A stretch of 41,563 nt of DNA from a virus (IMGVR_UViG_3300042562_003535:1-41563), one strand, 5' to 3'. Positions 1,153 to 22,486 are shown, numbered from the stretch's first letter. Made by a program: numbers and translations. The notes: generated by a model from the letters alone, not told the origin.

Positions 1153-2445
1153 ATGAAATTAAATGATGTTGCTCGTTTCGATAGAGGACAAGTCAAAGGC
1201 GATGCCTTCATTACAGATGAAGGGTACATCAAAGCCAATGCCATAGTCACCCGCACGGGTGTTTTTCTCTATAAAAACCCAGATGGAACTATTCGCAAAG
1301 AACTGCGTCATCCCGACGAAGTTTTCAAAACAGACAGCCTGGACAGCATGAAAATGATTCCTGTGACAAATGGGCATCCTCAAGAACGCCTTGTCTCGGC
1401 AGAAAACGCCAAGCGTCTTGCCATTGGCTATACAGGGGAAACAATTACCCAAGACGGTGAGTTCGTTCTTTCAAATTTAGTTATTACAGATCTTGCGAGT
1501 GTTAAAGACGTTACCGACAAGAACCGTAGAGAACTGTCTCTTGGTTACACCGTCGATCTCATCCCGGAAGAAGGAAGCTACAACGGCCAGCCTTATAACT
1601 TCCGTCAATCCAATATCAAATACAACCACTTAAGCATTGTTGACAATGCCAGAGCAGGCAGCGAGGCAAGAATCGCATTAGATAGTTTCGATGCAGAAGA
1701 AATCTTAATAGAGGAGGCCAATATGGCTAAAAGGAAAGTCAAAATTGACGATGACGAGATTTTGATGGAGGACAATGTAGCTAATCAAGTTGAGCAGCTG
1801 CTTGCCCGCATCGCAAATCTCGAAGCAGAAAATAGCAGGATAGCTGAAGAAAAAGACAAGCTGTCCGCTGAACTCAACTCAATAAAAAATGGGGATGTCG
1901 ACCTCGAAGAAGAGGAAGACGAGGGGGAGGAAAAGGAAGAAAAAGAAGTGGGTTACATGTCTAAGGAAAATCCTTATGCAACCCATGAAACTCCTGTGAA
2001 AGCTCCCAATGGTGAACGCGTTCCCATGAAGCCTCAGGACAAGGAGAAAAGAGAGAATGACAAATACAACAACATGGACGCTGCATTTATCAGATCTCTC
2101 GTTAGAGAAAGGGTCAAGCTGCAAAAAGTTGCAGAAAGCGTCCTGGACTCTAAAGCCTTGGCCAGAATTGATGATATGTCCGACTTGGAAATCAAGAAGG
2201 AAGTCATCAGAGCCCGCCAAAAAAACGCAAATTTAGACGGGAAGACTGCTGTTTATATCCAAGCGAGATTCGATGCTCTACTTGAAGATATGACTCCTGT
2301 TTCATCCCAAGTCATTGCAACCCCAGTCGAATACAGAACTAAACTCGATCAGCAGCCTGTCGATTCTTCCATGGCTCGCCAAGCGATGATCGACAAGATG
2401 AAAAATGGTTTCAAGCCCGGAGGTAAAATACCATGCCACAACTAA
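1153..2445 (+). CDS. DUF2213-type capsid maturation protease with C-terminal scaffold region
   Basis: A protein of 430 aa from ATG 1153; a TTG at 1141 is in frame but less convincing. Residues of about 1-185 match the DUF2213 pattern: a NGHP motif, an ELSLGYTVDL stretch, and NHLSIVDNARAGSEARI at the end. The His and Ser there resemble the catalytic pair of herpes/HK97-fold prohead proteases. After about residue 190 the protein becomes a coiled coil (QVEQLLARIANLEAE), then a very acidic stretch (LEEEEDEGEEKEEKE), then a helical tail, as in scaffolding proteins. It would chaperone capsid assembly, cleave head proteins and degrade the scaffold. It overlaps the next gene by 13 nt. Family assignment is from pattern recognition; catalysis is inferred. 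Confidence 0.75.
   Translation: MKLNDVARFDRGQVKGDAFITDEGYIKANAIVTRTGVFLYKNPDGTIRKELRHPDEVFKTDSLDSMKMIPVTNGHPQERLVSAENAKRLAIGYTGETITQDGEFVLSNLVITDLASVKDVTDKNRRELSLGYTVDLIPEEGSYNGQPYNFRQSNIKYNHLSIVDNARAGSEARIALDSFDAEEILIEEANMAKRKVKIDDDEILMEDNVANQVEQLLARIANLEAENSRIAEEKDKLSAELNSIKNGDVDLEEEEDEGEEKEEKEVGYMSKENPYATHETPVKAPNGERVPMKPQDKEKRENDKYNNMDAAFIRSLVRERVKLQKVAESVLDSKALARIDDMSDLEIKKEVIRARQKNANLDGKTAVYIQARFDALLEDMTPVSSQVIATPVEYRTKLDQQPVDSSMARQAMIDKMKNGFKPGGKIPCHN
1723..2445 (+). CDS. Possible nested scaffold protein from internal in-frame start
   Basis: ATG at 1723 is in frame with the protease gene and has a strong Shine-Dalgarno sequence, GAGGAGG at 1711-1717, five bases upstream. The product, beginning MAKRKVKIDDDE, would be 240 aa and contain only the coiled-coil and acidic scaffold part. 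Lambda C/Nu3 and other phages make free scaffold this way from inside the protease gene. The site and frame are seen directly; that it is used is inference. Confidence 0.5.
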   Translation: MAKRKVKIDDDEILMEDNVANQVEQLLARIANLEAENSRIAEEKDKLSAELNSIKNGDVDLEEEEDEGEEKEEKEVGYMSKENPYATHETPVKAPNGERVPMKPQDKEKRENDKYNNMDAAFIRSLVRERVKLQKVAESVLDSKALARIDDMSDLEIKKEVIRARQKNANLDGKTAVYIQARFDALLEDMTPVSSQVIATPVEYRTKLDQQPVDSSMARQAMIDKMKNGFKPGGKIPCHN

Positions 2446-3215
2446 GCTATCCCTTTTTAATGGATGTCGGGAGCGTAGGTCTTTTAGCCGATTCCGGCTT
2501 TAAAAACGTCCTTTCTCCTATAGCATTTGAGAATTTTAACGTGGGTCTCGGACTTGCGAAAGTAATTGGTCAAGATTACATCGTACGCCTTCCTCAGTCC
2601 AACCTATCGACAATTGTCCTAAGTGCAGACTTGGTCACATCCAATGTGATTAACGTAAGTGTAAATGGGATAGCACTAGCACCCATTACATTTGCAACTT
2701 CACACCTGGCAACAATGAACACTATTGCTGCTGCTATTTTAGCTCAACCAAATATTGCTTCAGCGATAGTTGGAGGGGCAAACAATAGAACAATAACTGT
2801 TACGGCAACAGAAAGTAAAATTGCTATTGTTAACTCATTTGTAGTGACTCTTGGTGCATCGCAAGCCACAGCAACCATCACGAATACTACTCAAGATACC
2901 TTCTATGGAGTTGGTGCGAGAACTCAAAATAAACCGAATCCTTTGAATACTCTTGGGTCATTTGGAAATCCGATTTATTTCCAAGGAGATTGCGTATCTC
3001 TGCTTACCAGAGGTCGTGTCTATGTAGCAGCAGAACAGAACCTAACAAGCGATAGCCCAGTTTACTGGAGATTTGCCGCCAATGGTCTTCTGCTTCCTGG
3101 TGGATTCCGTGCGGATTCAGACGGAGGCCGCGCTATTGCGCTTCCAGCTGCAAGGTACACTGTTGGAGCTACAGCTGGTGCTGTTGCAACGTTAGAAATC
3201 AACTTGCCGAACTAA
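2433..3215 (+). CDS. Capsid cement/decoration protein (gp24-like) with an inserted domain
   Basis: A protein of 260 aa with an upstream GGAGG (about 2420). The first 60 residues and the part from about residue 155 on (FYGVGARTQNKPNP, GDCVSLLTRGRVYV, then a hydrophobic beta-rich end) look like the structural cement proteins found between protease and major capsid genes in E217-like phages. Usual members are shorter. The extra length is residues of about 64-153, a copy of a domain also found in the sheath and J-like proteins of this window. It probably binds the capsid surface and would display the insert outward. The gene overlaps the protease gene by 13 nt and lies 12 nt before the capsid gene. 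Confidence 0.7.
   Translation: MPQLSYPFLMDVGSVGLLADSGFKNVLSPIAFENFNVGLGLAKVIGQDYIVRLPQSNLSTIVLSADLVTSNVINVSVNGIALAPITFATSHLATMNTIAAAILAQPNIASAIVGGANNRTITVTATESKIAIVNSFVVTLGASQATATITNTTQDTFYGVGARTQNKPNPLNTLGSFGNPIYFQGDCVSLLTRGRVYVAAEQNLTSDSPVYWRFAANGLLLPGGFRADSDGGRAIALPAARYTVGATAGAVATLEINLPN
2622..2891 (+). repeat. Insert domain copy A1 (in cement protein)
   Basis: Encodes about 90 residues running from LSADLVTSNVINVSVNG through FATSHLATMNTIAAAI to [16 protein letters not shown]. It interrupts the cement protein between VRLPQ and DTFYGVGA. It is most like copy A4: both share the SHLATMN-IAA core and an ANRTIT motif. The DNA copies differ at many third positions, so they are not recent duplicates. 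Confidence 0.75.
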
Positions 3216-3227
3216 GGAGAAGGTAAA

Positions 3228-4157
3228 ATGGATAAAATTGTTACTGTTAATCTCGACTCGGCAGAGACTGCTTTCTTTGCTCGTGAGCTCGAGTACATAA
3301 AATCAAAGTCGTACGACATTGAGTTCCCTCCACTCAAAGCGATCAAGCTAATTCCTGTTAGCACAGAAGCTGGTGCGGGTGCGGAATCGATCACTTACCA
3401 ATCGTTTGAAGAAACCGGTCTCGCTCGAATCATTTCGAGCTATGCCGATGACTTCCCTCGTTGCGATATCCGCGGTAAGGAATTCATCACTCCAGTGAAA
3501 TCTATTGGAGCTAGCTATGGTTATTCGATGCAAGAGATTAGAGCTGCGATGTTTGTAGGGCGAAGCCTCACACAACGTCAAGCCAACGCCACTCGAAGAG
3601 CTAATGATCAAAAGGTGAACAGGCTTGCTTGGTTTGGAGATAATGCCTCCAATATCCTCGGTCTAACTAATAACCCAAATATCCCAGCAGCATCCGTTCC
3701 TGCCGATGGTACCGGAGCTTCTACTCTTTGGGTTAATAAAACACCCGATCAAATTTTGCGCGATATGAACCAATTATCAAACGGTATTGTAGGCCTCACA
3801 AATGGGGTTGAAATGCCTAATACATTGATTCTTCCTATCGACCAATACACTTTGATCTCTTCAACTCCTCGTTCCGCTAACAGCGACACGACGATTTTAG
3901 AGTATTTCATTCAGAACAATCCTTTCATCACAACTGTGGACTGGGTTCCTGAATTGAAGGGTGCTGGTCCTGGCGGCGTTGACATCATGATCGCTTATGA
4001 GAAGAACCCTGATAAGCTCACGATGGAGATTCCAATGCCATTTACTCAATATCCGCCTCAAGAACGCGGTCTTGAGTTCATCATCAACTGCGAATCTCGA
4101 TATGGCGGGATCATCATCTATTACCCGCTTTCATTGTCTATCGGGGAGGGAATCTAA
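3228..4157 (+). CDS. Major capsid protein (DUF2184 family, HK97-like fold)
   Basis: A protein of 309 aa, the usual size for this capsid family. Typical segments are an N-terminal helical arm, YQSFEETGLARIISSYADD, the IGASYGYSMQEIRAA stretch with the following helix RQANATRRANDQKVN, and a C-terminal half with LILPIDQYTLISSTPRS and YEKNPDKLTMEIPMPFTQ. It forms the icosahedral shell. It has a clear ribosome binding site (AAGGAGAAGG) and follows the cement gene directly. Its stop overlaps the start of the next gene (TAATG), so expression is linked. No separate cleavage site is obvious by eye. Confidence 0.85.
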   Translation: MDKIVTVNLDSAETAFFARELEYIKSKSYDIEFPPLKAIKLIPVSTEAGAGAESITYQSFEETGLARIISSYADDFPRCDIRGKEFITPVKSIGASYGYSMQEIRAAMFVGRSLTQRQANATRRANDQKVNRLAWFGDNASNILGLTNNPNIPAASVPADGTGASTLWVNKTPDQILRDMNQLSNGIVGLTNGVEMPNTLILPIDQYTLISSTPRSANSDTTILEYFIQNNPFITTVDWVPELKGAGPGGVDIMIAYEKNPDKLTMEIPMPFTQYPPQERGLEFIINCESRYGGIIIYYPLSLSIGEGI

Positions 4158-4540
4158 TGGCTCTAGTCAAGTACAACGGTAAAAACGTCTACTATTGTAA
4201 CTTCACCAGCCGCCTGATGCCAGGGATCAATGAGATTCCGGAGGGCGAACTCAAAGCCCTCCTCCTTCACCCTTTATTTCAACACAGGGTCGAAGAAGGG
4301 ATCATCGTGATTATTCCCGAATCTTCAGACAAGGAAGCGGATGGCAAGAAGTCGGTTAAGGAGATGATGAAACTCATCCCTCAAATTTATGACCACGCCT
4401 ATCTGACTCGAATTATCGATGAAGATGGTCGTGACAAAGTCGTAGATGCAGCTAAAAAACAGCTTCATAAAATTTCTCATCAAGCGGAGGAAGAGGAAAA
4501 TGAGCATTTCGGATCCAATACCAAGTCAAACGATAATTGA
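4157..4540 (+). CDS. Hypothetical protein after the major capsid gene
   Basis: A protein of 127 aa that I do not recognise. Residues 1-60 form a small beta/alpha unit (YNGKNVYYCNFTSRLMPGINEIP). The rest is helical and highly charged (KSVKEMMKLIPQIYDHAYLTRIIDEDGRDKVVDAAKKQ) with an acidic tail. A small protein in this place is common in related phages and may serve head stabilisation or the neck. Its start overlaps the capsid stop (TAATG), and its last 41 nt overlap the next gene in another frame. Confidence 0.6.
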   Translation: MALVKYNGKNVYYCNFTSRLMPGINEIPEGELKALLLHPLFQHRVEEGIIVIIPESSDKEADGKKSVKEMMKLIPQIYDHAYLTRIIDEDGRDKVVDAAKKQLHKISHQAEEEENEHFGSNTKSNDN

Positions 4541-4913
4541 TACGTTATTCGTTATTGCACCGCAGTTCTATACGACCGATCCAACGAAGTTGGCTAACTA
4601 CAATACCATGATTGGTTTGTTGAGATGCCAAGTCAATGAACAGGTCTTATCTTGCTGCGGCGTGCTAGCCTACGTCTATCTTTTGGCTCATTGGCTTCAA
4701 TTGCAAACCAGTCCTCAAACAGGAGTGGCTACTAATCTCAGCGAAGGAGAACTGTCCATTGGGCTTGCAATCTCGCCCGATTCCTCCATCCTGAATGCCA
4801 CCCAATATGGCAGGTTGTACAAAGATTTGATCAAACGAACCGTCATCGGTTCAACTGTAACGAATTTACCCCCTAATTTTGCGGTGATCAATGCGTGCTG
4901 TTGTCAAGGATAA
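4500..4913 (+). CDS. Head-tail connector protein, DUF4054-like
   Basis: A protein of 137 aa starting MSISDPIPSQ at ATG 4500, chosen because GGAGGAAGAGG lies just upstream; a longer frame from 4446 lacks a site. It shows the DUF4054 pattern: an FVIAPQFY segment, a helix with CQVNEQVLSCC, and a hydrophobic helix ending AYVYLLAHWLQLQ, followed by a mobile region. Members are adaptor-like proteins joining portal and tail. It contains several cysteines (LSCCG and a CCCQG end), unusual for the family as I know it. Gene position supports the call. Confidence 0.6.
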   Translation: MSISDPIPSQTIIDTLFVIAPQFYTTDPTKLANYNTMIGLLRCQVNEQVLSCCGVLAYVYLLAHWLQLQTSPQTGVATNLSEGELSIGLAISPDSSILNATQYGRLYKDLIKRTVIGSTVTNLPPNFAVINACCCQG

Positions 4914-5370
4914 GGATCTAGGATTTGATGAAATCCAACGGCAAATTGCTTTGCTCGATGGCTCCTACGTCAATGTCGGTTTTCAAGAGGGAACCGCCAC
5001 AAAGACACAGGTAAAAGGACAGCGGAAGCAAACTGCTGGACTTTCAATTCCTCAAATAGCAGCTGGGAATGAATTCGGGACGAATATTCCAGCCAGACCC
5101 TTTATGTCTACAAGCTTCGATGAGAACAAGGCATTAATAAACAAGGCGATACAAGGCGAATACACTAAAATTTTGGACGGTAAAAGAACAGCAGAAAAAT
5201 CCTTAGGATTGATAGGACAGCTAATGACAAAACTAATTGTTCAAAAAATCCGTGCAATTGTTTCCCCTCCCAACTCTCCAAGGACTATCGCTATTAAGAA
5301 GAGCTCCAAACCTTTAATTGACTTCGGTCAGATGGTGCAGTCAGTGCGCTATAAGGTGGTACTCAAATGA
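4891..5370 (+). CDS. HK97 gp10-like tail completion / neck protein
   Basis: A protein of 159 aa. The core IAAGNEFGTNIPARPFMSTS is the hallmark of phage HK97 gp10-like and related tail completion proteins. The C-terminus SKPLIDFGQMVQSVRYKV is the typical ending strand pair. It would act at the head-tail joint. A lysine-rich loop (TKTQVKGQRKQTAG) precedes the motif. The start overlaps the end of the connector gene by 23 nt, and its stop overlaps the next ATG (ATGA). Confidence 0.78.
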   Translation: MRAVVKDKDLGFDEIQRQIALLDGSYVNVGFQEGTATKTQVKGQRKQTAGLSIPQIAAGNEFGTNIPARPFMSTSFDENKALINKAIQGEYTKILDGKRTAEKSLGLIGQLMTKLIVQKIRAIVSPPNSPRTIAIKKSSKPLIDFGQMVQSVRYKVVLK

Positions 5371-5723
5371 CATCGCCATTTGAAATCTTTCGCTCTCCAG
5401 TAATACTTCGTCGCTTTCAAAGCGGAGGTTATACGAATGGACGCTGGATTGATGGCGCTTACACAGATACACAAATAACTTCCAGCATCCAGCCTATGAA
5501 GGGTGAAGAAATGCAGGAGCTGCCAGAGGCAAGAAGAGATTCAGAAGGTTATAAGCTTTTTACCTCAACCCTCATTAACACTGTCACGAGTGTAAATCCC
5601 GACCTAGTTCTTTTCTTCGGGAAAACTTTTGAAGTAGTTCAGGTTTTTCCATGGCAAAACGCACCGGCAATGGGGTTGGTAAACCATTATAAATACTTAG
5701 TTTTAAGGCTCGAAGGACAATAA
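5367..5723 (+). CDS. Probable head closure / head-tail joining protein
   Basis: A beta-rich protein of 118 aa: VILRRFQSGGYTNGRWIDGAY, then SSIQPMKGEEMQELPEARR, and a terminal VFPWQNAPAMGLVNHYKYLVLRL. This layout, with a central P-x-x-x-E-x-M-Q-x-L-P-E-x-R-R block, is common in small head-tail joining proteins next to gp10-like genes. I assign it by that pattern and by position. The start codon overlaps the previous stop. Confidence 0.58.
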   Translation: MTSPFEIFRSPVILRRFQSGGYTNGRWIDGAYTDTQITSSIQPMKGEEMQELPEARRDSEGYKLFTSTLINTVTSVNPDLVLFFGKTFEVVQVFPWQNAPAMGLVNHYKYLVLRLEGQ

Positions 5724-5740
5724 AAAGGAATTGAAAAACC

Positions 5741-5912
5741 ATGAAAGCAAAAATTATTTCAGACACTTCTTTTATGACGTTAGAAGAAAGGCTCAATAAC
5801 TTCCTCAATGAAGTGACAGCCAACGCATGGAAGTTATTCGATGTCAAATATGACACCTATTATCAGCAAGGCTTCGAGCTTCATTCTGTTCTCGTTTTGT
5901 ATGGAGTAGAAG

Positions 5913-5923
<11 letters not shown>
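5741..5923 (+). CDS. Small protein, possibly Cse60/DUF2758-like
   Basis: A protein of 60 aa with a plausible site (AAAGGAATTG) upstream. The pattern MKAKIISDTSFMTLEERLN, NFLNEV, then a strand LFDVKYDT and a final LHSVLVLYG resembles the small Cse60-type proteins (a helix followed by two strands), which occur in phage and plasmid regions without known function. The similarity is weak. It overlaps the next gene by 11 nt, supporting translation within the tail operon. Confidence 0.5.
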
Positions 5924-8335
<2,412 letters not shown>

Positions 8336-8352
8336 ATACTTAGGAGATAATT

Positions 8353-8787
8353 ATGTCAGTAAGAACCTATGACCCTAAGCAGGTCATCATTACAGTAGGT
8401 GGGATTCCTATGAGCGGCTTCGCTGATGGAACTTTCTTAACAGTTGATAGAGATGACGATCAATGGACGAAAGTTACAGGGGCAGACGGTACAAGCACAC
8501 GTATTAAAAGCAACAATCGTTCCGGAAGCATGACGATAACCTTAAAACAATCAAGCCCTAGCAATGATGTCCTTTCAGGATTTGCTAATGTTGATGAGTT
8601 AACCAATGCAGGCGTAGTGCCTATCTTGATCAAAGACTTGAGCGGAAATTCTCTTTATTTCAGTGCTACTGGTTGGGTGAAGAAATATCCATCTTCTGAA
8701 TTTGGTAAAGATTTAGCTAATCGCGATTGGGTTCTTGATCTAGTTGATCTGGATGTCTTTGTCGGCAGCAATGGAGTAAACGTCTAA
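8353..8787 (+). CDS. Tail tube protein (DUF3277 type)
   Basis: A protein of 144 aa. DPKQVIITVGGIPMSGFADGTFLTV, followed by an acidic RDDDQW and a GADGTSTRIKSNNRSGSMTITL stretch, is the DUF3277 tube pattern. The end (DLANRDWVLDLVDLDVFVGS) is the usual last strand. Monomers stack as hexameric rings to form the inner tube driven through the host envelope. It follows the sheath gene by 17 nt with a good site (TAGGAG), and its stop overlaps the next ATG (TAATG). Confidence 0.85.
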   Translation: MSVRTYDPKQVIITVGGIPMSGFADGTFLTVDRDDDQWTKVTGADGTSTRIKSNNRSGSMTITLKQSSPSNDVLSGFANVDELTNAGVVPILIKDLSGNSLYFSATGWVKKYPSSEFGKDLANRDWVLDLVDLDVFVGSNGVNV

Positions 8788-9263
8788 TGATTGAAACACG
8801 AGAAAAACACATCAATGGATCAGTTTATAGCTGTACTCAGTTACCAGCCAGAAGAGCTTTGAGGATGAAAGCAAAACTTCTGCGAATATTTGGACCCGCT
8901 TTGGCCCAATTATTCCTTCCGGGAGGCAAAGATCAAAGCATGGCCGGACTTCCTTTTTCAAAAGGAGAAGCCGTCAAAGCTATTGAATCCTTAATGTCTC
9001 AATTGGATGACAAAACATTTGAAAGTTTAGTCCTTGAGCTATGCCAAGGAGTCAGAAAAGAGGGAATGGAATTAACCGATTCTGTAATAGATGTTGAATT
9101 TGCAGGAGATCTACCCACTTTGATGCAGGTTTTGGCTTTCGTCGTGGATTGCAATTTCGGTTCTTTTTTTGGGGAGAGCGGTATTGGAGGCCTATTCAAG
9201 GAAGCAACACCGATGCCGCAGAATCGTCAGCCAGATACGAGAAAAACCTCCATACGGAATTAA
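8787..9263 (+). CDS. Tail assembly chaperone, short (G-like) product
   Basis: A protein of 158 aa located between tube and tape measure, where tail assembly chaperones always lie. The sequence has a helical middle (EAVKAIESLMSQLDDKTFESLVLEL) and a hydrophobic VLAFVVDCNFGSFF just before the slippery run at 9164-9170. Chaperones of this kind coat the tape measure protein during tail assembly. After the slippery site the zero frame gives about 30 more residues that look disordered (KEATPMPQNRQPDTRK), as in lambda gpG. A longer frameshift product is listed separately. Confidence 0.75.
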   Translation: MIETREKHINGSVYSCTQLPARRALRMKAKLLRIFGPALAQLFLPGGKDQSMAGLPFSKGEAVKAIESLMSQLDDKTFESLVLELCQGVRKEGMELTDSVIDVEFAGDLPTLMQVLAFVVDCNFGSFFGESGIGGLFKEATPMPQNRQPDTRKTSIRN

Positions 9264-9424
9264 AAGATGAATTCCTTCTCTGGCGATTAGTATTGGAAGG
9301 AATAGCTTCTTTAGAGGAAATCGAGCGCACATGGAATCTAGATGATCTGTTGAGGGCAAATGCTTTGCTGGATATGCGACTCGACCTGATGGAAGAATCT
9401 AAAAGGAAAAGGTCGAAGAAATGA
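8787..9424 (+). CDS. Tail assembly chaperone, -1 frameshift (G-T-like) fusion product
   Basis: Reading the first 128 codons and then slipping back one base on the T7 run yields a 212-aa fusion. The downstream part begins WGERYWRP and continues with KDEFLLWRLVLEGIASLEEIERTWNLDDLLRANALLDMR, ending SKRKRSKK. That segment has no convincing start codon of its own, but is a well-formed helical domain like the T part of lambda GT. It reaches the tape measure start with an ATGA overlap. The frame arithmetic was checked: the upstream frame starts at 0 modulo 3 and the downstream frame at 2, which is a -1 shift. Confidence 0.75.
9164..9170 (+). other. Slippery heptamer for programmed -1 frameshift
   Basis: Seven T residues lie in the register T TTT TTT relative to the chaperone gene and are followed by GGGGAG. 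This is a valid X-XXY-YYZ heptamer. It is placed before the end of the short frame, exactly where the two chaperone frames overlap. Confidence 0.75.
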
Positions 9425-10527
9425 CAGTCGTTAGAGAATTAGTCACTAGATTAGGTTTTCAAGTCGATCAAAGAGGCGTTGAGCAATTTAATCGCACAAT
9501 CATCGGTTTTAAAACAAAATTTGCCATTGCAGCAACAGCTGCAACTGCATTTGTTGCAAAAACCCTAGACTTTTTCAATGACATTGCAAACGCTACATTA
9601 GATGCCAATGATCTTGCGAAGAGCATAGGCATTTCATTCGAAGAATTTATTAAGCTAAGAAGAGCTGCCGAAGAGTTTAGAATTGATCCAAGTAATTTTG
9701 ATGCTGCCCTTTCAAGTTTGAATAAAATGCTTCAAGATGCTCAATGGGGAATGGGGCAGCTTCAAGAAATCGCTTATTACACAGGGATAGAAATTAGAGA
9801 TAATTTCACTGGTGAATTGAAGAATGCTAATCAATTATTTATCGACATCCTCAAGCATATCAATACTCTTAGCAATGATCGAGATAAATTAAAGGTTGCT
9901 GTCGCTTTCTTCGGTGAAAAAGACGCCCAGAAATATATAGATTTTGCCAAGGCAGCAGGCGATAGCATTGGATTGCTGACAGAAAAACATACCGAATATG
10001 CTAAGGCCTTGAAAGATGGAATCCCAAGTCTAAGCCAATATTCTCGAAATCTAGCGGTTTTTAAAAATCAGCTAACACAACTGACAGAAGTTTTCGTAGT
10101 TAAGCTCTTGCCTGCCATCACTGAGGCTCTTGGAATATTCACCCAAATTTTAAATGGAGATGCTTTTAAAGGCTTTGGAGTGATTGCAGATGTCTTTTCC
10201 ACAGAAGGAATTAAGGGGGGATTTTCATTTATTGCGGATGCGATCAATGAGCAAGTCGCCAAATTATTCGGTGGTGAAACTCTTAACATGGTTAAAAGGA
10301 AAGCAGCTGAAGAAGATGCCTTCTTTTTCAATGCCTTAATAGAGCAGCAAAAACTAGGAAAACTACCTGCTAATTTTAATATCAATACCAAAGTCGATAT
10401 GCAAATTCCACCTGGCACAACTGAACAACAACAAACTGCGATTAAGCAATCTTTTGATGAAGCCTTTGACAATGCCTTCATAGATAAGATTCGAGAAATT
10501 TATAACAACAATCCGCAGGTGGAATAA
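9421..10527 (+). CDS. Tail tape measure protein (short)
   Basis: A protein of 368 aa located directly after the tail chaperone pair. It is almost all helix: an N-terminal amphipathic start (MTVVRELVTRLGFQVDQRGVEQ), a hydrophobic alanine-rich segment at about 35-47 (FAIAATAATAFVAK), then a heptad-rich body and a hydrophobic patch near 225-245 (FVVKLLPAITEALGIFTQIL). Tape measures set tail length and are ejected first. The short length predicts a short contractile tail, of order 50 nm if the usual 0.15 nm per residue holds. Both ends overlap neighbours by 1-4 nt. Confidence 0.78.
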   Translation: MTVVRELVTRLGFQVDQRGVEQFNRTIIGFKTKFAIAATAATAFVAKTLDFFNDIANATLDANDLAKSIGISFEEFIKLRRAAEEFRIDPSNFDAALSSLNKMLQDAQWGMGQLQEIAYYTGIEIRDNFTGELKNANQLFIDILKHINTLSNDRDKLKVAVAFFGEKDAQKYIDFAKAAGDSIGLLTEKHTEYAKALKDGIPSLSQYSRNLAVFKNQLTQLTEVFVVKLLPAITEALGIFTQILNGDAFKGFGVIADVFSTEGIKGGFSFIADAINEQVAKLFGGETLNMVKRKAAEEDAFFFNALIEQQKLGKLPANFNINTKVDMQIPPGTTEQQQTAIKQSFDEAFDNAFIDKIREIYNNNPQVE

Positions 10528-11171
10528 TGGTATTATCTCTACTCTTTGGAAAGAAATATCCAAGCCCCAAAGTTGGATCGATTGATCTTGATGTTACCAT
10601 TCGTGAAGAGCATCGGTTTGCTTCGCGTGTAACGAATTACCCGATTGAAGATGGTACAATCCTATCGGATCACATTATCAACGAACCAGACATATTGGTA
10701 TTGGTTGGGCTTGTTACAGATACCCCCTTAAGTGTTTTCGCTCCTTTCAACCGTTCAATTGATGCGTTTAACCGCCTGATTGCCCTTCATCAATCAAGGC
10801 AACCAGTGACAGTGGTCACAGGATTGAAAGTTTATCAAAACATGGCCATCACAGTTTTAGATGTCCCAAGAGACATGAAAACAGGGCAATCCTTAACGTT
10901 TACCATCGAACTACAAAGGCTTGTCATAGATACCAGCGTTAGATTGCAGCTCGATCAAGGAAACGTATTTGGAGGAGTACAGAATAAGATACCCAGAGAC
11001 ATTGTGGCTTCAAATGCTAATTATCCCCTCATTCAAAACGATCCTATTAACAGCTTAAAAGATCAGGCGTCGAGTGGAATTAATGTTGGAGTCCAGTCCT
11101 TAATTCCTGTTCAACCGACTATTCTTCCCAATGTTTTGGCTAGCAAGAATCTAATTCTAGGGGTGGCATAA
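10527..11171 (+). CDS. Dit-like baseplate/distal tail protein
   Basis: A protein of 214 aa. The N-terminal half has the Dit-like pattern: IGSID-type strand (GSIDLDVTIREEHRFASRVTNY), then PIEDGTILSDHIINEPDIL, LVGLVTD, and a later strand with SLTFTIELQRLVI. In E217-like phages such proteins sit at the tube tip and organise the baseplate hub. The C-terminal 70 residues are low complexity with asparagine and proline. Its neighbours are the tape measure and the plug protein, which fits. Start and stop codons overlap adjacent genes. Confidence 0.65.
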   Translation: MVLSLLFGKKYPSPKVGSIDLDVTIREEHRFASRVTNYPIEDGTILSDHIINEPDILVLVGLVTDTPLSVFAPFNRSIDAFNRLIALHQSRQPVTVVTGLKVYQNMAITVLDVPRDMKTGQSLTFTIELQRLVIDTSVRLQLDQGNVFGGVQNKIPRDIVASNANYPLIQNDPINSLKDQASSGINVGVQSLIPVQPTILPNVLASKNLILGVA

Positions 11172-11491
11172 TGCAGATCATACCTTTTAAAGAACCAGCC
11201 CAATGGCAAGAACAGATCGAATTGGACAGCCAAACCTTTGTTTTATCCTTCAGATGGAACGCCATGAATGAATATTGGGTTATGGACATTTTAACTCGTG
11301 ATTTAGTGCCTATCATTCTAGGGATAAAAGTAGTGTCTAACTACGATTTGACCGCTCAATTTGTCAATGATGGGAAGCCACGGGGGGAAATTGTTTGTCA
11401 AAATATCATTGGAGGAGAAGGAAAAATTCAACGGTTAGACATGGGCGAAGTGACTGAACTCATCTATTACACTCTTGGGGAGTTCGTTTAA
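11171..11491 (+). CDS. Baseplate plug protein (Pam3 gp18-like)
   Basis: A protein of 106 aa and beta-rich. The run MQIIPFKEPAQWQEQIEL, FVLSFRWNAMNEYWVMDIL, then PIILGIKVVSNYDL is the pattern of the small plug proteins named from cyanophage Pam3 gp18, which close the tube tip in the baseplate. It sits between the Dit-like and hub genes as expected. The start overlaps the previous stop and the stop abuts the next ATG. Confidence 0.65.
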   Translation: MQIIPFKEPAQWQEQIELDSQTFVLSFRWNAMNEYWVMDILTRDLVPIILGIKVVSNYDLTAQFVNDGKPRGEIVCQNIIGGEGKIQRLDMGEVTELIYYTLGEFV

Positions 11492-12355
11492 ATGGCAAGA
11501 TTTGATCGAATGGCATCTGTAGAAGTCGGGCTTAGAAATGATACTTTCAATGGTTATATTGGAACGATCAAACTCTCAGCTTTACGTATTTCTTTCTCGA
11601 TACAAAAGAATTTAGCCTGGTCAACCAATACCGCTTCTGTCAAAATTTGGAATCTCAGCCAAGAAAATAGAAACAGGATTAAGGATTATGGAGACCAAGT
11701 TATATTGTCCGCAGGATATAGGCAAGATGCAGGTGAGCAACTCCTTTTCATTGGTAACACCACTCAAGTCAGCCATGCCTACGATCAGCCAGAAATCGTC
11801 ACTACCCTTGATTGTGGAGATGGAGAAAGAGTTCTTAATCAGAAGTCTATTACCGTTAGCTTCAAGGAAAAGGTCCCAGTGCGTCAGGTTGTCCAGACAA
11901 TCGCCGATCAACTTGGGCTATCTATTTCTGAGTTTACTGCTACTGACAACGTTGTTTATGAGCAAGGATTTGAATATGCTGGAATGGGTAAAAATGCCCT
12001 AGACAAAGCAGTTTTAAGACTTGGTTTAAGATGGAGCGTCCAAAATGGAAAGCTTCAAATCATTCCTCAATATGGTACCACCTCAAAGCCTGCGATAGAA
12101 ATTAATGCCGATACGGGCATGATTGGCATTCCTCAACGTTATACAGATAAAAGAGCGGCTGTTTATTTGGATGGCCCTCGCACTGGTTACATTGTTCAAA
12201 CTACCCTTCGACCAGATATTCTCCCAGGCGATAGACTCAATATTAAATCAGAACGCATCGGACTTAATGGCCCTTACGCTGTTTTTTCTATTAAACACGA
12301 AGGTGATCTATTTGGTCCAAATTGGCGATCAATAATGGAAGTGATTTTAGTATGA
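11492..12355 (+). CDS. Baseplate hub protein (gpD/gp27-like)
   Basis: A protein of 287 aa. It begins with a strand-rich domain (VEVGLRNDTFNGYIGTIKLSALRISFSIQK) and ASVKIWNLSQENRNRIKDYGDQVILSAGY, the usual first hub barrel. It continues with VRQVVQTIADQLGL, a second domain typical of hub proteins (GKNALDKAVLRLGLRWSVQNGKLQI), and ends LNGPYAVFSIKHEGDLFGPNW. The hub is a trimer at the end of the tube that carries the spike. Gene order (plug, hub, spike) supports this. Confidence 0.72.
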   Translation: MARFDRMASVEVGLRNDTFNGYIGTIKLSALRISFSIQKNLAWSTNTASVKIWNLSQENRNRIKDYGDQVILSAGYRQDAGEQLLFIGNTTQVSHAYDQPEIVTTLDCGDGERVLNQKSITVSFKEKVPVRQVVQTIADQLGLSISEFTATDNVVYEQGFEYAGMGKNALDKAVLRLGLRWSVQNGKLQIIPQYGTTSKPAIEINADTGMIGIPQRYTDKRAAVYLDGPRTGYIVQTTLRPDILPGDRLNIKSERIGLNGPYAVFSIKHEGDLFGPNWRSIMEVILV

Positions 12356-12573
12356 AGGCAGAACGTTTAGAAGATTTAGGAAGAATAAGAGAAAAACTCG
12401 ACCAGTTACTAAATATTGAATTTTGTGGCTGGGGCGATCAATATAAAAGGGATCAGTTTGTAAATCATTATTTAAATAACGATGATGGCTTAGAAGAATT
12501 AGGTTGGGCTTTATCAAAAGTCCGCGATGGACTCCTTGATTGTTTAACAATAGCACAGGGTGATGAAGAATGA
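12352..12573 (+). CDS. Small hypothetical protein between hub and spike genes
   Basis: A protein of 73 aa starting MKAERLEDLGRIREKLDQLL, from ATG 12352 that overlaps the hub stop as ATGA. An upstream in-frame start at 12322 would overlap the hub gene further and has no better site. The protein is helical and acidic (GDQYKRDQFVNHYLNNDDGLEELGWAL). It overlaps the spike gene by 4 nt. I do not recognise it. A baseplate assembly helper is a guess from its place. Confidence 0.58.
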   Translation: MKAERLEDLGRIREKLDQLLNIEFCGWGDQYKRDQFVNHYLNNDDGLEELGWALSKVRDGLLDCLTIAQGDEE

Positions 12574-13220
12574 CAACGATCACTGATGCTTTAAGACAAG
12601 CAATTCAATTTCAGCTTTATGATGTCCATACCGCTTTGCCTGGCGTCATTGTTTCTTATGACTATACGAAGCAAAAAGCTGAAGTCCAACCGGCATTGAA
12701 AAAGAGTTATTTAGATGGGACTACATTGGATTTGCCTATTTTAAGTAATGTCCCAGTAATTTTTCCAAAAGCAGGCGGTGCTAGTTTGACTTTTCCAGTT
12801 GTTCAAGGTGACACCTGCTTGCTTTTGTTTATTGAAAGGAGTACAGATCTTTGGAAATCAGTAGGAGGCAATGTAGCACCCAACGATCCAAGGAAATTCG
12901 ACCTATCCGATGCTATTGCAATCATGGGGCTTTTTCCTTTTACAGAAAATTCTTTAGCTGAGAACAACTCGGACGTGCTTTTAACTTATAAAAGCTCTAA
13001 TATAAGAATCAAAGAAAGTGGTGACATTCAAATTGAAACTGCTGGTAAAGTAGCGATCGGGAACACCTCTACAGAGGTTCTCGATATTGTCAGTAAAATA
13101 CTAGGAATTTTGACAACCTCGGTGACAACCGCAGTTGGAAACCCAATATTCCAAGGCACAGTGCCGACATACGCCACATTGAAAGCATCTATAGATGCTC
13201 TTAAGGGTACAATCCCTTAA
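12570..13220 (+). CDS. Baseplate spike protein, Gp138 N-terminal OB-fold type
   Basis: A protein of 216 aa. Residues of about 20-110 (LPGVIVSYDYTKQKAEVQPALKK, LPILSNVPVIFPKAGGASLTFPV, QGDTCLLLFIERSTDLW) are the Gp138/gpV-like OB domain that caps the tail tip. Residues of about 120-165 (SDVLLTYKSSNIRIKESGDIQIETAGKVAIGNTS) resemble the repeating beta-helix of spike tips. A short helical C-terminal end follows. It pierces the outer membrane, so a double-membrane host is implied. The gene overlaps the previous one by 4 nt. A 7-bp hairpin (13201-13220) covers its stop codon. Confidence 0.78.
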   Translation: MTTITDALRQAIQFQLYDVHTALPGVIVSYDYTKQKAEVQPALKKSYLDGTTLDLPILSNVPVIFPKAGGASLTFPVVQGDTCLLLFIERSTDLWKSVGGNVAPNDPRKFDLSDAIAIMGLFPFTENSLAENNSDVLLTYKSSNIRIKESGDIQIETAGKVAIGNTSTEVLDIVSKILGILTTSVTTAVGNPIFQGTVPTYATLKASIDALKGTIP

Positions 13221-13248
13221 AAATTACTCAAGTATCCAATAGCCTTAA

Positions 13249-13298
13249 TTAACTCAAATACCCATCTGTAAACGTATTAGGAAACGTTTTTGAGTTAA
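13249..13298. repeat. Inverted repeat in the spike-wedge gap
   Basis: TTAACTCAAA at 13249-13258 pairs perfectly with TTTGAGTTAA at 13289-13298. Inside it, AAACGT near 13270 pairs with ACGTTT near 13283. The gap 13221-13307 is one of the few in the tail operon and has no gene. The structure could be an operator, a processing site or a cruciform. There is no T-tract, so a simple terminator is unlikely. Confidence 0.5.
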
Positions 13299-13307
13299 CG
13301 AGGCTTC

Positions 13308-13670
13308 ATGAAAGATATAGCGCTAGACACAACAACTGGCGATTTACTCTTACAAGATTTTGACTTGCAATTCGTTGAGGATCAAGACCAGATCGCTCAA
13401 AATCTAGCCATTCGCTTGCGCTTTATTTTGGGAGAATGGTTCTTAGATATCACTGCAGGCGTTTCCTATTATCAAGATTTTTTCATCAAATCCCCCAATC
13501 AAATTCGAATGGAAAGTGTTCTCAAACAAGAGATTCTTTCTACTCGAGGCGTAAACCAAATTCTCAGTTTCTCAAGTAATTTTGACGATACACGGCGTAT
13601 TTATTCCGTGACTTTCTCTGTGGACACTGTCCAAGGGCAAATCACGATAACGCAGGAATTACTAACATGA
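13308..13670 (+). CDS. Baseplate wedge protein, gp25/gpW-like
   Basis: A protein of 120 aa with the gp25-like pattern: MKDIALDTTTGDLLLQDFDLQFVEDQDQIAQNL, then RLRFILGEWFLDITAGVSYYQD, with the helix QIRMESVLKQEILSTRGV and a terminal strand. The GEWFLD-x-x-x-GV-x-Y-x-x motif is the family signature. This lysozyme-related but inactive protein links the sheath baseplate ring to the wedges. It overlaps the J-like gene by 4 nt (ATGA). Confidence 0.82.
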   Translation: MKDIALDTTTGDLLLQDFDLQFVEDQDQIAQNLAIRLRFILGEWFLDITAGVSYYQDFFIKSPNQIRMESVLKQEILSTRGVNQILSFSSNFDDTRRIYSVTFSVDTVQGQITITQELLT

Positions 13671-15655
13671 CATTTGGTTTAACCGCTCAGGGATTTAAAG
13701 CTAAACGATTAGTCGATATTCAAACTGATTTAGAAAATCAGCTGCTCGCAGAATTTGGCGATATCAACTTAGATCCGCAATCTATATTTGGCCAGCAAAT
13801 CGGAGTATTTTCAAAGGTTTTAGCCGATCTGTGGGAAAATATGGAAGATGTTTACTTCAGCCAATATCCCAACTCAGCTGAGGGAATTAGCTTAGATAAC
13901 GTCGTTCAATTTAATGGCATTACACGCCTAGCAGCTCAACAAACGAGAGTAACTGGCGTATGTGTTGGATTAGAAGGAACACTGATAAATCAAGGCGCAC
14001 TTGCTAGAATTCCCGATACTGGAGCCGTGTTCTTTGCTAGAGAAAACACAATTATCACTCGAACTCAAGCAGCGGCAGCGACTCTTCAAGTGATTGCACT
14101 GGCAGCTCAACCTTATACCGCATTAATCAATAATCAAGCCTTTAGCTATTCATTACCAGTTATCACTTTCACAGGAAGCTTCGTTGCTTCTAACTCTATC
14201 GTAGTTACTTTGAATGGCGTGGCCTTAGGCGCAGTCCCTTTCACTACAAATAGCGCACTCACAAACGCAGCCATTGCCGCAATGATTGCCACCTCTCCAG
14301 CGGTTTTCTCTGTAGGAACTCCAGCTGGTAATATAATAACTATTATTCCAAATGCTGGATTCAATGTCATAATTAATTCAATTGTGATTACAGGCGGAGT
14401 AAGTCAGCCAACTTATGCCATAACCTATCAGATTCCTGGATCAAACAATTTATTAACGGCAGCTTTGACCTCCGTCATTAATGCAGGCACTCAACCTGTG
14501 ACGGCCATAGATAATATGGACGGAACCATTACCGTAAATGCCGATGATACAGATGTCCCTTTTTCCATTGCTGTTGGAACAAATTTAAATATCACAGCAC
14601 AAGCTACCCCTGTTGTTTTCTTATCTCAGGATTTTGGTCCAATTGTCGCCCCTATTAATACTTTGACCGAAATCCTAACTCCTATTTCTGGTTGGATATC
14701 AATAAATAATCCAAAAGCTGGATTAACAGGCCGTCTTATCGAAACAGACGCAGAATTAAGAATTCGTCGAAATAATTCCTTACGATTATTAGGTGCTGGA
14801 ACCGTCGAATCAATTAGAGCTAGATTGCTTCAGCAAGTTCCCGGAGTCACTTCTGCTTTCGTTTTCGAGAATAGAGATTTGACTCAAGAACCTATTTTGA
14901 TCGTATTAAACCAAGATTTAGTCTCAGGCAACACAATCGTAGTTGTCCTCAATGGAACGACCTTACCAACCGTCACCTTTGCTGTTTCTCATTTAGCCAC
15001 AATGAACGTGATTGCAGCCTTAATTCAAAATCAACCTGAAGTTGTAACGGCAACCGTTGGTGGAACTGCCAATAGAACGATCACGATGAACATGGCTAGC
15101 GCTATCGAAGTGATTATGATTCCTAATGACTTTACCGTTAGTGGAGGGGCTTCACAAGCAACGGCGGTTATTAAAGGGGGAAGATTTCCAAAAAGTTTTG
15201 AAGCTGTCGTACAAGGAGGCACTGATGCTGACGTCGCAAATAAAATCTGGACCACGAAACCAGCAGGTATCCAAACGTTCGGAAATACTGCGTTTACCAT
15301 CACCGACTCACAAGGTGAATTCCAAGTCATCAATTTTAGCCGCCCCACCCCCATCTACATTTGGGTTACGGTTGCCTTAACTCTATATGCGGAAGAAGTG
15401 TTTCCGCCTAATGGCCAGGATTTAGTGGCGGCTGCCATTAATACATATGGATCTAACTTAGGTATAGGCGTAGACGTACTATTGCAACGTGTTCTTGCTC
15501 AGATTTTCAATGTTCCCGGCATTGCCAGCGGAGTGATGCAAATTGCATCCACAAATTTACCAGGTGATAGTCCCCTATTCGGCACGGCAGATATCAGCAT
15601 CGCAGAAAACGAAGTTGCTATCTTTGATCTAACAAGAATAACGGTGACAGTATGA
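13667..15655 (+). CDS. Baseplate wedge J-like protein with three extra domains
   Basis: A protein of 662 aa; usual J-like proteins are about 350-420 aa. The core is clear: N-terminal MTFGLTAQGFKAKRLVDIQTDLENQLLAEFG, GISLDNVVQFNGITRLAAQ, then IETDAELRIRRNNSLRLLGAGTVESIRARLLQ, KSFEAVVQGGTDADVANKIW, and a C-terminal EVFPPNGQDLVAAAINTYG. The excess is a B domain (about 149-314) interrupted by insert copy A3 (about 168-252), plus insert copy A4 (about 414-504) placed between VFENRDLT and GRFPKSFEA. J proteins form the baseplate wedges and bind fibres. The inserts should be surface-exposed. Confidence 0.85.
   Translation: MTFGLTAQGFKAKRLVDIQTDLENQLLAEFGDINLDPQSIFGQQIGVFSKVLADLWENMEDVYFSQYPNSAEGISLDNVVQFNGITRLAAQQTRVTGVCVGLEGTLINQGALARIPDTGAVFFARENTIITRTQAAAATLQVIALAAQPYTALINNQAFSYSLPVITFTGSFVASNSIVVTLNGVALGAVPFTTNSALTNAAIAAMIATSPAVFSVGTPAGNIITIIPNAGFNVIINSIVITGGVSQPTYAITYQIPGSNNLLTAALTSVINAGTQPVTAIDNMDGTITVNADDTDVPFSIAVGTNLNITAQATPVVFLSQDFGPIVAPINTLTEILTPISGWISINNPKAGLTGRLIETDAELRIRRNNSLRLLGAGTVESIRARLLQQVPGVTSAFVFENRDLTQEPILIVLNQDLVSGNTIVVVLNGTTLPTVTFAVSHLATMNVIAALIQNQPEVVTATVGGTANRTITMNMASAIEVIMIPNDFTVSGGASQATAVIKGGRFPKSFEAVVQGGTDADVANKIWTTKPAGIQTFGNTAFTITDSQGEFQVINFSRPTPIYIWVTVALTLYAEEVFPPNGQDLVAAAINTYGSNLGIGVDVLLQRVLAQIFNVPGIASGVMQIASTNLPGDSPLFGTADISIAENEVAIFDLTRITVTV
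14168..14422 (+). repeat. Insert domain copy A3 (in J-like protein, inside domain B)
   Basis: About 85 residues, from FTGSFVASNSIVVTLNGVAL to IINSIVITGGVSQPTYAIT. It shares the FVASNSI and TLNG opening with A2. It interrupts domain B at the same place as A2 does in the sheath, after the first hairpin. Confidence 0.75.
14906..15178 (+). repeat. Insert domain copy A4 (in J-like protein)
   Basis: About 91 residues, from LNQDLVSGNTIVVVLNGTTL to FTVSGGASQATAVIKG. The SHLATMNVIAAL core and ANRTIT motif match A1 of the cement protein. It lies between two parts of the J core that are contiguous in ordinary J proteins. Confidence 0.75.
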
Positions 15656-18033: not shown

Positions 18034-18702
18034 ATGGCTCACAATTCATCAGTCAACCTAGATATCTCTAACCTATCGGTTGGATTTAGCATTGGTGGTG
18101 GTACCACCAAAAGAACTGTCACACATAATGGTAGTGGAGATTTCACTCTCACCAACCAATTTGCTGGTGCAGGCGTTTATACATTCCCAAATAGAGCAGC
18201 AGATACCTTAATAGGTTTTGCAGATTACACCGCGAAGGGGGTTATCCTTGTCGGCACAGGAGTAGGTACTTTTACCCCTTTGACTGTTGGAACAGATAAT
18301 TTTGTTTTAACAGCCGACTCTTCTCAAACTTCAGGTATTAAATGGGCAGCTTCATCGGGTGGCAGTGGTGGTGTTACCTCCTGGGTAGACGTCACAGGCA
18401 CTTCTCAAGCAATAGCTGTTAATACCGGCTATATCGCTGATAATGCCTCTTTATGCACTCTGACCCTTCCAACAACAGCAGCACAAGGAACAGTTTTCAG
18501 AATAGCTGGAAATGGTGCAGGTGGTTGGTTATTGGCACAAAACGCATCCCAAACAGTTAAATTTGGAAATGTGGCAACAACTGCTGGAGTTGGGGGAAGC
18601 CTAGCTTCGACAGATTCTGGAGATGCTTTAGAGTGCCTTTGCGTAGTTGCCAATACGACATGGAGAGTTCTAAGTTCAGTCGGAAACTTGACCGTCGTAT
18701 AA
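18034..18702 (+). CDS. Tail fibre-like protein
   Basis: A beta-rich protein of 222 aa. The middle ([28 protein letters not shown]) is a repeat unit common in phage and bacterial fibres. The C-terminal 100 residues ([55 protein letters not shown]) recur in the fibre gene at 38609-39313, so the two carry a shared tip domain. It is probably a host-binding fibre. Site: AAGAGGGAT. Confidence 0.65.
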
Positions 18703-19051: not shown

Positions 19052-19927
19052 GTGGCCACAAATAATGCTATAAACGGTTCCATTAAGATCACAACTTATA
19101 CTTCTAGTTCTGGAACATGGACAAAGGACTCTCGTACGAAGTGGATAGAAGTATTTTTATGGGGCGGAGGTGGTGGTGGAGCTTCCGGAAGAAAAGGAAC
19201 TAGCGCTTCATCTTCCGGAGGTGGCGGTGGTGGTTCTGGAGGCTCAGGATATTTTGCAGCTCCTTCTTCATTTTTTGGATCCACAGAGTCTTATACAATT
19301 GGAGCTAGCGCTGGTGGAGCAGTAGCCCAAACCGTAGATGCGACAAATGGTAATAATGGAACTACCGGAGGTAATACAACATTTGGAAATATGATAGCTG
19401 TTGGTGGAGGTGCGGGCCAAGGCGGAGGAACTTCATCAGGTATCAATGGTGTCGGTGGAGGATTAAACACTTCGTATGCTATTTCCTCCGTTGTAACTAA
19501 TCCTGGTGGTGCTGGAAGAAATACCGCAGGAGATACAACAGCAGCAGTAATTACTTTTTCACCTACAGGAGGTGGCGGTGGAGGCGGGGGCGATACTGTT
19601 ACTGCAAGATCTGGAGGAGCTGGTGGTGCAATTACTAATTCAAATGGTGTTACTTACGTAGCCGGCGGAACCGCTGGCATAGAAACAGGCACGCTAAATG
19701 GAGGTAATGGAAATCCTTCTGTGACTAGTGGTGGGTTAATTTGTGGTGGTTCTGCTGGCGGAGGCGGGGGTGGGGCAAAAGCTGGAACGACAGGTGGAAC
19801 TGGCGGAAATGGAGGTAATCCTGGAGGTGCTGGTGGTGGCGGAGGCGGTGGAATATCCGCACAAGCCAATTCAGGAGCTGGTGGTGCGGGCTCCGCTGGT
19901 AAAATAATAGTCATCGAGCACTTCTAA
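19052..19927 (+). CDS. Glycine-rich tail fibre/adhesin protein 1
   Basis: A protein of 291 aa that starts at GTG 19052, chosen by AAGGAG six bases upstream. The opening SGTWTKDSRTKWIEVFLWGGG leads into long glycine-rich runs (GGGGGGSGGSG and GGGGGGGGG types) separated by short loops, ending GKIIVIEHF. Such blocks can form packed polyglycine-II helices, as in the gp38 adhesin of phage S16, where loops between glycine stretches bind the receptor. The paralogue that follows shares both ends. Confidence 0.65.
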   Translation: MATNNAINGSIKITTYTSSSGTWTKDSRTKWIEVFLWGGGGGGASGRKGTSASSSGGGGGGSGGSGYFAAPSSFFGSTESYTIGASAGGAVAQTVDATNGNNGTTGGNTTFGNMIAVGGGAGQGGGTSSGINGVGGGLNTSYAISSVVTNPGGAGRNTAGDTTAAVITFSPTGGGGGGGGDTVTARSGGAGGAITNSNGVTYVAGGTAGIETGTLNGGNGNPSVTSGGLICGGSAGGGGGGAKAGTTGGTGGNGGNPGGAGGGGGGGISAQANSGAGGAGSAGKIIVIEHF

Positions 19928-19939
19928 AAAGGGGTAAAT

Positions 19940-22175: not shown

Positions 22176-22231
22176 AATAAAGTATGAAACCGATATCAGG
22201 TCAGAATATATAAGTTAATGAAAATAATATG

Positions 22232-22424: not shown

Positions 22425-22460
22425 TATAAATAATTTACTTTTTATAAAGGAATGCAGCAT

Positions 22461-22486
22461 TTCTCTTTCGTTTTAAAGAAAGAGAA
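22461..22486. repeat. Hairpin in unit 1 of the duplication
   Basis: TTCTCTTTC (22461-22469) and GAAAGAGAA (22478-22486) form a perfect 9-bp stem with loop GTTTTAAA. It is repeated at 22906-22931. No T-run follows on either strand, so it may act as a weak terminator or mRNA end. Confidence 0.5.

What the first reader, a model, noticed from the sequence alone, without database searches (positions are those of the whole stretch)
2622..15178. One domain of about 88 residues inserted four times in three virion proteins
Copies lie in the cement protein (about 64-153), the sheath (about 123-211) and the J-like protein (about 168-252 and 414-504). Each opens with a strand and V-x-LNG-type turn, has a central A-x-x-A-A-I helix, and closes with a GASQ-type motif such as [11 protein letters not shown]. 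In each case the host protein core resumes exactly where ordinary family members continue. The domain thus spreads as an add-on to surface sites of head, tail and baseplate. DNA copies are well diverged, so it is not a recent duplication. It may be a decoration or glycan-binding domain.
Basis: partly seen in the sequence, partly recalled or inferred. Interest (0 to 1): 0.85.

Follow-up and report, generated by a model that had tools for sequence, protein, structure and literature searches.

The report
Add-on domain across phage outer shell
A previously undescribed protein module of about 90 residues has been inserted many separate times into the outward-facing head, neck, tail and baseplate proteins of contractile-tailed phages (here a phage or phage-plasmid of amoeba-dwelling chlamydiae), probably as a surface decoration whose binding partner is unknown.

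Summary
Four copies of one ~90-residue domain sit in the cement protein, the tail sheath and (twice) the J-like wedge; pairwise z-scores are 12-25 against shuffles. No Pfam, PHROG, NCBIfam or PDB sequence model covers it. It folds alone with very high confidence (pLDDT 97.5) around one central helix. In the sheath model it is nested between strand 2 and the helix of another small domain of similar topology. About 220 copies in ~143 contigs lie in cement, head-completion/collar, neck terminator, DUF4054, DUF3383 sheath, T4-type sheath and J-wedge proteins, with at least 4 sites in the DUF3383 sheath core and about 6 in cement, and domain-less homologues for several families. No copy was found in capsid, tube, tape-measure, hub or spike homologues. 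Copies mostly group by host protein but show many more host changes than one insertion each would need. Best reading: a promiscuous add-on domain for outer-virion loops, analogous to phage Ig-like domains but a different fold. Its function is inferred: polyvalent weak surface display, with subunit stabilisation the main rival. Glycan binding is not supported.

The parts
2433..3215 (+). cement/decoration protein (PF22758 Phage_cement) carrying one copy
   Evidence: Pfam E=3.6e-18; core profile matches Pam3 cement 8hdt E=5e-7 and a decoration protein 9kmg
2607..2885 (+). copy 1 of the add-on domain, cement residues 59-151
   Evidence: modelled alone at pLDDT 97.5
5367..5723 (+). head-completion/collar protein (E217 gp28-like), empty allele: homologues L007, L009, L036 carry the domain between GRW-x-EG and the ITSSIQP strand
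   Evidence: 18 of 73 homologues carry it
5913..6440 (+). neck/tail terminator (PF23961), empty allele: homologues L129, L154, L175 carry the domain after the N-terminal helix
   Evidence: 5 of 70 homologues carry it
6449..8335 (+). DUF3383-type tail sheath (PF11863, phrog_205) carrying one copy
   Evidence: AF2 pLDDT 88.2, pTM 0.80; Foldseek E=1e-30 to Sf14 sheath 9c3b
6719..6799 (+). first half (strands 97-102, 105-110) of A-type domain A1, interrupted by the insert
6800..7081 (+). copy 2 of the add-on domain, sheath residues 118-211
7082..7243 (+). second half (helix 216-230, strands 234-263) of A-type domain A1
7256..7492 (+). uninterrupted second A-type domain A2 (residues 270-348), the one present in the short solved sheath 9zdk
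13667..15655 (+). baseplate J-like wedge protein (PF04865, phrog_6) carrying two copies
   Evidence: solved homologues 9ndy and 9zd7 align on either side of both inserts
14156..14437 (+). copy 3, J-like residues 164-257, again inside an A-type stretch
   Evidence: 9ndy alignment jumps 162 to 172 while the query jumps 162 to 263
14891..15178 (+). copy 4, J-like residues 409-504
   Evidence: 9ndy alignment jumps 315 to 323 while the query jumps 402 to 504

Best explanation
This is an autonomous, insertable domain (strands around one central helix, first and last strands at the two ends of the unit) that phages have repeatedly placed, in frame, into loops of the proteins forming the outside of the virion: capsid cement, neck collar and terminator, tail sheath, baseplate wedge. 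SHOWN: the copies are homologous; the domain folds alone in prediction; insertion sites differ between relatives; domain-less homologues exist; relatives of internal proteins do not carry it; copies have changed host protein more often than one insertion per protein would need. INFERRED: (i) insertion happens by rare illegitimate or homology-assisted recombination between phage genes and is tolerated because the termini lie together, so a loop can accept the domain without disturbing the core; (ii) the domain projects from the virion surface; (iii) it is kept because many copies per virion give low-affinity, polyvalent contact with the cell surface, other virions or the environment, or space and shield the virion, as proposed for phage Ig-like domains. 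The partner is unknown. It may descend from the A-type domain native to sheath, wedge and nozzle proteins, which would explain nesting in a look-alike, but that homology is only weakly supported.
For: Homology of copies. Autonomous fold; nested but intact in the sheath model. Distribution: 222 copies in 209 non-redundant host ORFs, ~143 contigs, in PF22758, PF11863, PF04865, PF23961, DUF4054, collar/HCP and T4-type sheath families; Rhizobium 192-kb phages carry it in a T4-type sheath of another family. Independent sites: cement 78 of 90 junctions at one site plus about 5 other sites; DUF3383 sheath nested in A (32), in place of A (8), after the WYAL strand (6), and an N-terminal site in L129 and L211. 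Empty alleles: cement in L154, L175, collar and terminator in the window itself, solved sheath and wedge homologues. Outer-shell restriction: cement 44/52, sheath 53/75, J 23/24, collar 18/73, terminator 5/70 versus MCP 0/99, tube 0/51, tape measure 0/31, hub 0/21, spike 0/21. Movement between hosts: 38 label changes versus a minimum of 8 and 93 when shuffled; a few within-genome moves, e.g. 61% identity between cement and sheath copies of one phage. Exposure precedent: T4 gp18 domain I is an insertion that protrudes and makes no subunit contacts (PMC3004832); E217 cement gp24 forms a surface protrusion (PMC10329688).
Against: No binding partner, phenotype or complex structure. Exposure is inferred. 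Some insertion sites correspond approximately to loops that in E217 contact neighbours (gp24 omega loop 58-75, gp28 extension 28-38), which could mean a structural rather than a free decorating role. Loci were fetched because they carry the domain, so the per-protein percentages are biased (this cannot by itself create the zeros for internal proteins next to carriers). The domain is nearly absent from isolated phages (only 5 Rhizobium records), so it is not generally required.
Confidence: 0.6

Rival explanations
1. The domain is a structural reinforcement: inserted in loops that touch neighbouring subunits, it adds lateral contacts (cement lattice, neck rings, sheath rings, wedge) and stabilises the virion or tunes contraction; surface exposure is incidental.
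For: The main cement site lies near the loop that in E217 gp24 packs against the neighbour's arm, and the collar site near residue 31 falls in the E217 gp28 lateral extension 28-38 (PMC10329688; correspondence approximate). Conserved residues are structural and no ligand-site signature is seen.
Against: At least 4 sheath sites and about 6 cement sites are used, not what one conserved interface would give; tandem copies in sheaths look like beads on the outside; T4 domain I, a comparable nested insertion, makes no subunit contacts (PMC3004832).
Confidence: 0.25
2. The domain is a near-neutral passenger: outer-shell loops tolerate insertions, internal proteins do not, so copies accumulate where they do no harm.
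For: It explains the outer-only distribution and scattered sites without any function.
Against: The fold signature is conserved across copies as low as 30% identity, with T36 invariant and N13, N20, G83, Q86 at 95-97%, so purifying selection acts on it; copies are vertically kept within host families.
Confidence: 0.15
3. It is specifically a glycan-binding domain.
For: Polyvalent virion-surface display is typical of glycan-binding add-ons (general knowledge).
Against: Almost no Trp/Tyr, no conserved polar/charged cluster; no lectin or CBM family match; the best PDB fold matches are sheath, nozzle and baseplate domains, not lectins.
Confidence: 0.1
4. The four segments are unrelated look-alikes of a common strand-helix-strand fold of virion proteins, not one inserted domain.
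For: The native A-type domain has similar topology and weak profile similarity (hhalign probability 51%, E=1.5e-4).
Against: Sequence similarity among copies is far above chance, while the A-type stretch of the same sheath scores only 2.1 bits with the profile.
Confidence: 0.02

Closest known systems
Ig-like add-on domains of tailed-phage virion proteins (Fraser et al. 2006, cited in PMC10684548; T4 Hoc, T5 pb10, Sf14 gp20 in PMC11821841)
   Same: Small autonomous domains rich in strands, spread across different virion surface proteins and phages, variable copy number, presence/absence among homologues.
   Different: Different topology (central helix, no Ig Pfam match above cut-off); inserted inside core loops in frame rather than appended; on cement, neck, sheath and wedge proteins of one phage; up to 6-8 detected copies per contig.
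T4 sheath gp18 domain I (PMC3004832)
   Same: A ~90-residue domain of strands plus one helix, inserted into another inserted domain of a sheath protein; protrudes outward.
   Different: Described there only for gp18; here sequence-related copies occur in at least seven protein families. Homology to domain I was not tested.
A-type small domain native to DUF3383 sheaths (9zdk gp76, Bitten sheath), J wedge, and the nozzle of cyanophage P-SCSP1u (8i4m)
   Same: Similar strand/helix order; weak profile similarity; both the A-type profile and the insert model hit nozzle 8i4m.
   Different: The insert has its own signature (N-x-I, VNG/LNG turn, T at helix start, G-G-A-S-Q) not seen in A-type domains; common origin unproven.
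Sheath of cyanophage A-1(L) (8kee)
   Same: Best solved fold match of the isolated domain, probability 1.00, TM 0.61, 22% identity.
   Different: E=0.022 only; no sequence-profile hit.
Sheath of Rhizobium phages RHph_N46/I42/N28_1/N42 and RHEph12
   Same: True members: 32-39% identity, profile E=8e-25.
   Different: Host protein is a T4-type sheath (PF04984/PF17482), not DUF3383; two copies, the first degenerate.

Membership tests
This add-on domain family (as defined here) | Significant match to the profile and the N13/N20-G21/T36/G83/Q86 signature | tested here: met
   All four window copies
Phage Ig-like add-on domains | Immunoglobulin beta-sandwich fold without a central helix | tested here: not met
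   Model has helix 33-45; no Ig/Big family match; one copy hits PKD at only 11.7 bits, below cut-off; best Foldseek PDB hits are sheath/nozzle/baseplate
Phage Ig-like add-on domains | Occurs as a presence/absence module in several classes of virion surface protein | tested here: met
A-type domain of DUF3383 sheath / J wedge | Sequence homology to the A-type profile | tested here: inconclusive
   hhalign probability 51%, E=1.5e-4 over 58 columns; 9zdk A-type hit at E=0.025
T4 gp18 domain I | Homologous fold at the homologous place of the sheath | not tested
   Only the analogy of nested insertion is taken from PMC3004832
Carbohydrate-binding module / lectin | Recognisable CBM or lectin family, or an aromatic sugar-binding site | tested here: not met
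   No Pfam match, Trp 0.0%, Tyr 0.7%; binding itself not testable
Phage_cement PF22758 | Core matches the family above its cut-off | tested here: met
   66.5 bits against cut-off 27 for the host protein
DUF3383 tail sheath PF11863 | Core matches the family above its cut-off | tested here: met
   96.9 bits against 34.9
Baseplate_J PF04865 | Core matches the family above its cut-off | tested here: met
   34.3 bits against 21.1

The most novel reading that the evidence does not exclude
The domain is a virion-wide docking tag: the same module is planted on cement, neck, sheath and wedge so that one common partner (a fibre, a decoration protein or a host component) can bind along the whole particle, and phages add or remove tags by moving the domain between genes.
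Probability: 0.1. Interest if true: 0.85.

Novelty: new variant of a known kind. Interest (0 to 1): 0.62.

Why it matters
Add-on domains on phage surfaces are known mainly as Ig-like domains. This is a domain family absent from the family libraries searched here that enters the interior of conserved structural proteins at many different loops, spans the virion from capsid to baseplate in one phage, and is even nested inside a look-alike domain. It gives a natural map of insertion-tolerant loops in cement, collar, terminator, sheath and wedge proteins, and a set of with/without homologue pairs on which its function can be tested. It also explains long unannotated stretches in head and tail proteins of phages from chlamydiae and other environmental hosts.

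Tried and rejected
Recent duplication: rejected (DNA 49-55% identical, longest shared word 9 nt). More copies in the window: none. Known family: no Pfam, PHROG or NCBIfam model covers the segment; hits such as Rhabdo_matrix and Adeno_PX are below cut-off. Solved relative by sequence: none significant. Recent spread within the genome as the main process: only 7 of 96 copies have their best other-protein relative in the same genome (shuffled mean 1.1, max 6), so most insertions are old. A phylum-wide genome search could not be centred on a locus and was dropped. Literature searches for a sheath/cement insertion or decoration domain found nothing that describes this one. Label caveat: three host ORFs filed under the wedge label (L129, L211, L236) are really DUF3383 sheaths with unusual insertion sites, so the count of host changes is approximate.

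Full report
WHAT IS THERE. The window is a 41,563-base virus record whose first 17 kb is a head-neck-tail-baseplate module of a contractile-tailed phage. The cement protein (2433-3215, PF22758), sheath (6449-8335, PF11863/phrog_205) and J-like wedge (13667-15655, PF04865/phrog_6) each contain one or two segments of 92-96 residues that no family model names. The four segments align with roughly 30-55% identity and local scores 12-25 standard deviations above shuffled sequence; a profile finds exactly these four places in the whole window. DNA identity is 49-55% with no shared word over 9 nt.

FOLD. With 66 diverse copies as alignment, AlphaFold2 predicts the isolated cement copy at mean pLDDT 97.5, pTM 0.89: E2-5, E14-19, helix 33-45, E50-56, E62-67, E75-81, E89-92. 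Nearly invariant positions are N13, I15, N20, F29, T36, T81, G83, Q86: structural Gly/Asn/Thr/Gln and core residues. Trp 0.0%, Tyr 0.7%, Lys 0.5%, Arg 1.0%, which speaks against a classical glycan site. No Pfam, NCBIfam or PDB sequence relative. Foldseek's best PDB matches are domains of phage sheaths (8kee A-1(L), 9cba PhiTE), T7-like nozzles and a Bas63 baseplate protein, all weak; among predicted viral structures the one strong match is a 773-aa protein, E=5e-7, TM 0.86, the length of the Rhizobium phage N46 sheath.

NESTING. The full sheath model (pLDDT 88.2, pTM 0.80) shows strands 97-102 and 105-110, then the complete inserted domain 117-208, then helix 216-230 and strands 234-263, then a second uninterrupted small domain 270-348, then the sheath core. 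Copy 2 is therefore inserted between strand 2 and the helix of a small 'A-type' domain, and the solved homologue 9zdk gp76 has just one A-type domain at that place. At J copy 1 the 9ndy alignment breaks at residue 162 of both proteins, again inside an A-type stretch. A-type and inserted domain share strand order and weak profile similarity (hhalign probability 51%, E=1.5e-4), so common origin is possible but unproven.

RELATIVES. Scans of IMG/VR with four sub-alignments and of bacterial genomes, plus the phage records fetched, gave 261 loci. Iterated profile search finds 222 good copies in 209 non-redundant host ORFs. Host proteins by Pfam/PHROG: cement, DUF3383 sheath, J wedge, head-completion/collar (phrog_939, E217_gp28-like), neck terminator (PF23961), DUF4054 (L054), and T4-type sheath. 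Some contigs carry 6-8 copies. In the isolated-phage collection only five Rhizobium ~192-kb phages match, in a T4-type sheath.

INDEPENDENT INSERTIONS. After removing the domain and aligning cores, 78 of 90 cement junctions fall at one site, the rest at about five others. DUF3383 sheaths use four: nested in A (1-3 tandem copies), in place of A, after the WYAL strand, and near residue 37. Wedges use two main sites. Empty alleles: cement in L154 and L175; collar and terminator in the window itself, aligned with filled ones from relatives; solved sheath and wedge proteins. A tree of 181 copies needs 38 changes of host protein (least possible 8, shuffled 93): copies are mostly inherited within a host protein but have moved repeatedly. 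Within-genome moves exist (cement and sheath copies of L211 61% identical; three L054 copies cluster together) but are a minority. With ~90 columns many forks are unresolved.

WHERE IT IS NEVER FOUND. Among homologues of the window's structural genes in the same loci: MCP 0/99, tube 0/51, tape measure 0/31, chaperone 0/31, DUF2213 0/86, hub 0/21, spike 0/21, W-like 0/19, against cement 44/52, sheath 53/75, wedge 23/24, collar 18/73, terminator 5/70. Loci were chosen for carrying a copy, so the positive rates are inflated, but the zeros sit next door to carriers. This is the strongest evidence that the domain belongs to the outer shell.

HOW IT PROBABLY WORKS. T4 gp18 domain I, a strand-plus-helix insertion within an insertion, protrudes from the tail and makes no subunit contacts (PMC3004832); E217 cement trimers form surface protrusions (PMC10329688). 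By analogy the domain is most likely displayed in high copy on the particle. What it touches is unknown; weak polyvalent adhesion or shielding is my leading inference, subunit reinforcement the main rival (some sites correspond approximately to E217 loops that contact neighbours), passenger status the third.

HOST CONTEXT. Window 1-24000 is 91% identical over 91% of its length to plasmid 1 of Criblamydia sequanensis CRIB-18, which has the same four copies; close loci occur in Rhabdochlamydiaceae and Parachlamydiales MAGs. Phage genes on that plasmid were noted before (PMC7846284).

VERDICT. Observation confirmed; interpretation right about insertion and add-on behaviour, unproven for exposure, unsupported for glycan binding. 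A domain family new to the libraries searched, which works like, but is not a member of, the phage Ig-like add-on domains.

Noticed in passing
window 1-41563; NZ_LK031773.1: The window looks like a relative of the phage part of the 89.5-kb Criblamydia sequanensis plasmid (91% nucleotide identity): a tailed-phage structural module joined to ParA (23300-24082), primase-helicase (24615-26960) and a 548-aa unassigned protein next to it (26957-28603), i.e. probably a phage-plasmid of chlamydiae.
   Followed up: partly
window 28588-31212: At least eight copies of a ~41-nt repeat (TTGTAAACA..TGTAAACAAAATCGACC...CACA) downstream of the replication genes; candidate iterons or regulatory sites.
   Followed up: no
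window 30009-30956 versus NZ_LK031773.1 51239-54004: Different cargo between the replication block and the recombination genes: a CDF cation-efflux transporter here, an arsenic-resistance operon on the Criblamydia plasmid.
   Followed up: no
window 19052-20812: Two adjacent paralogous glycine-rich proteins (291 and 290 aa; Gly_rich_2 matched for the first, DNA repeats 75-76% identical at 885-nt spacing), presumably tail-tip or fibre proteins.
   Followed up: no
window 18034-18702 and 38570-39313: Two distant ORFs share a similar stretch (57-nt repeat, 79%), possibly fibre-type paralogues 20 kb apart.
   Followed up: no
window 22044-22942: A ~445-nt tandem duplication (about 90% identical) just upstream of the ParA gene.
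   Followed up: no
L129:2290-3126 and L129:3099-4559; L211:7582-8271: DUF3383 sheaths with the domain near the N-terminus; in L129 the adjacent terminator and sheath genes both carry it.
   Followed up: partly
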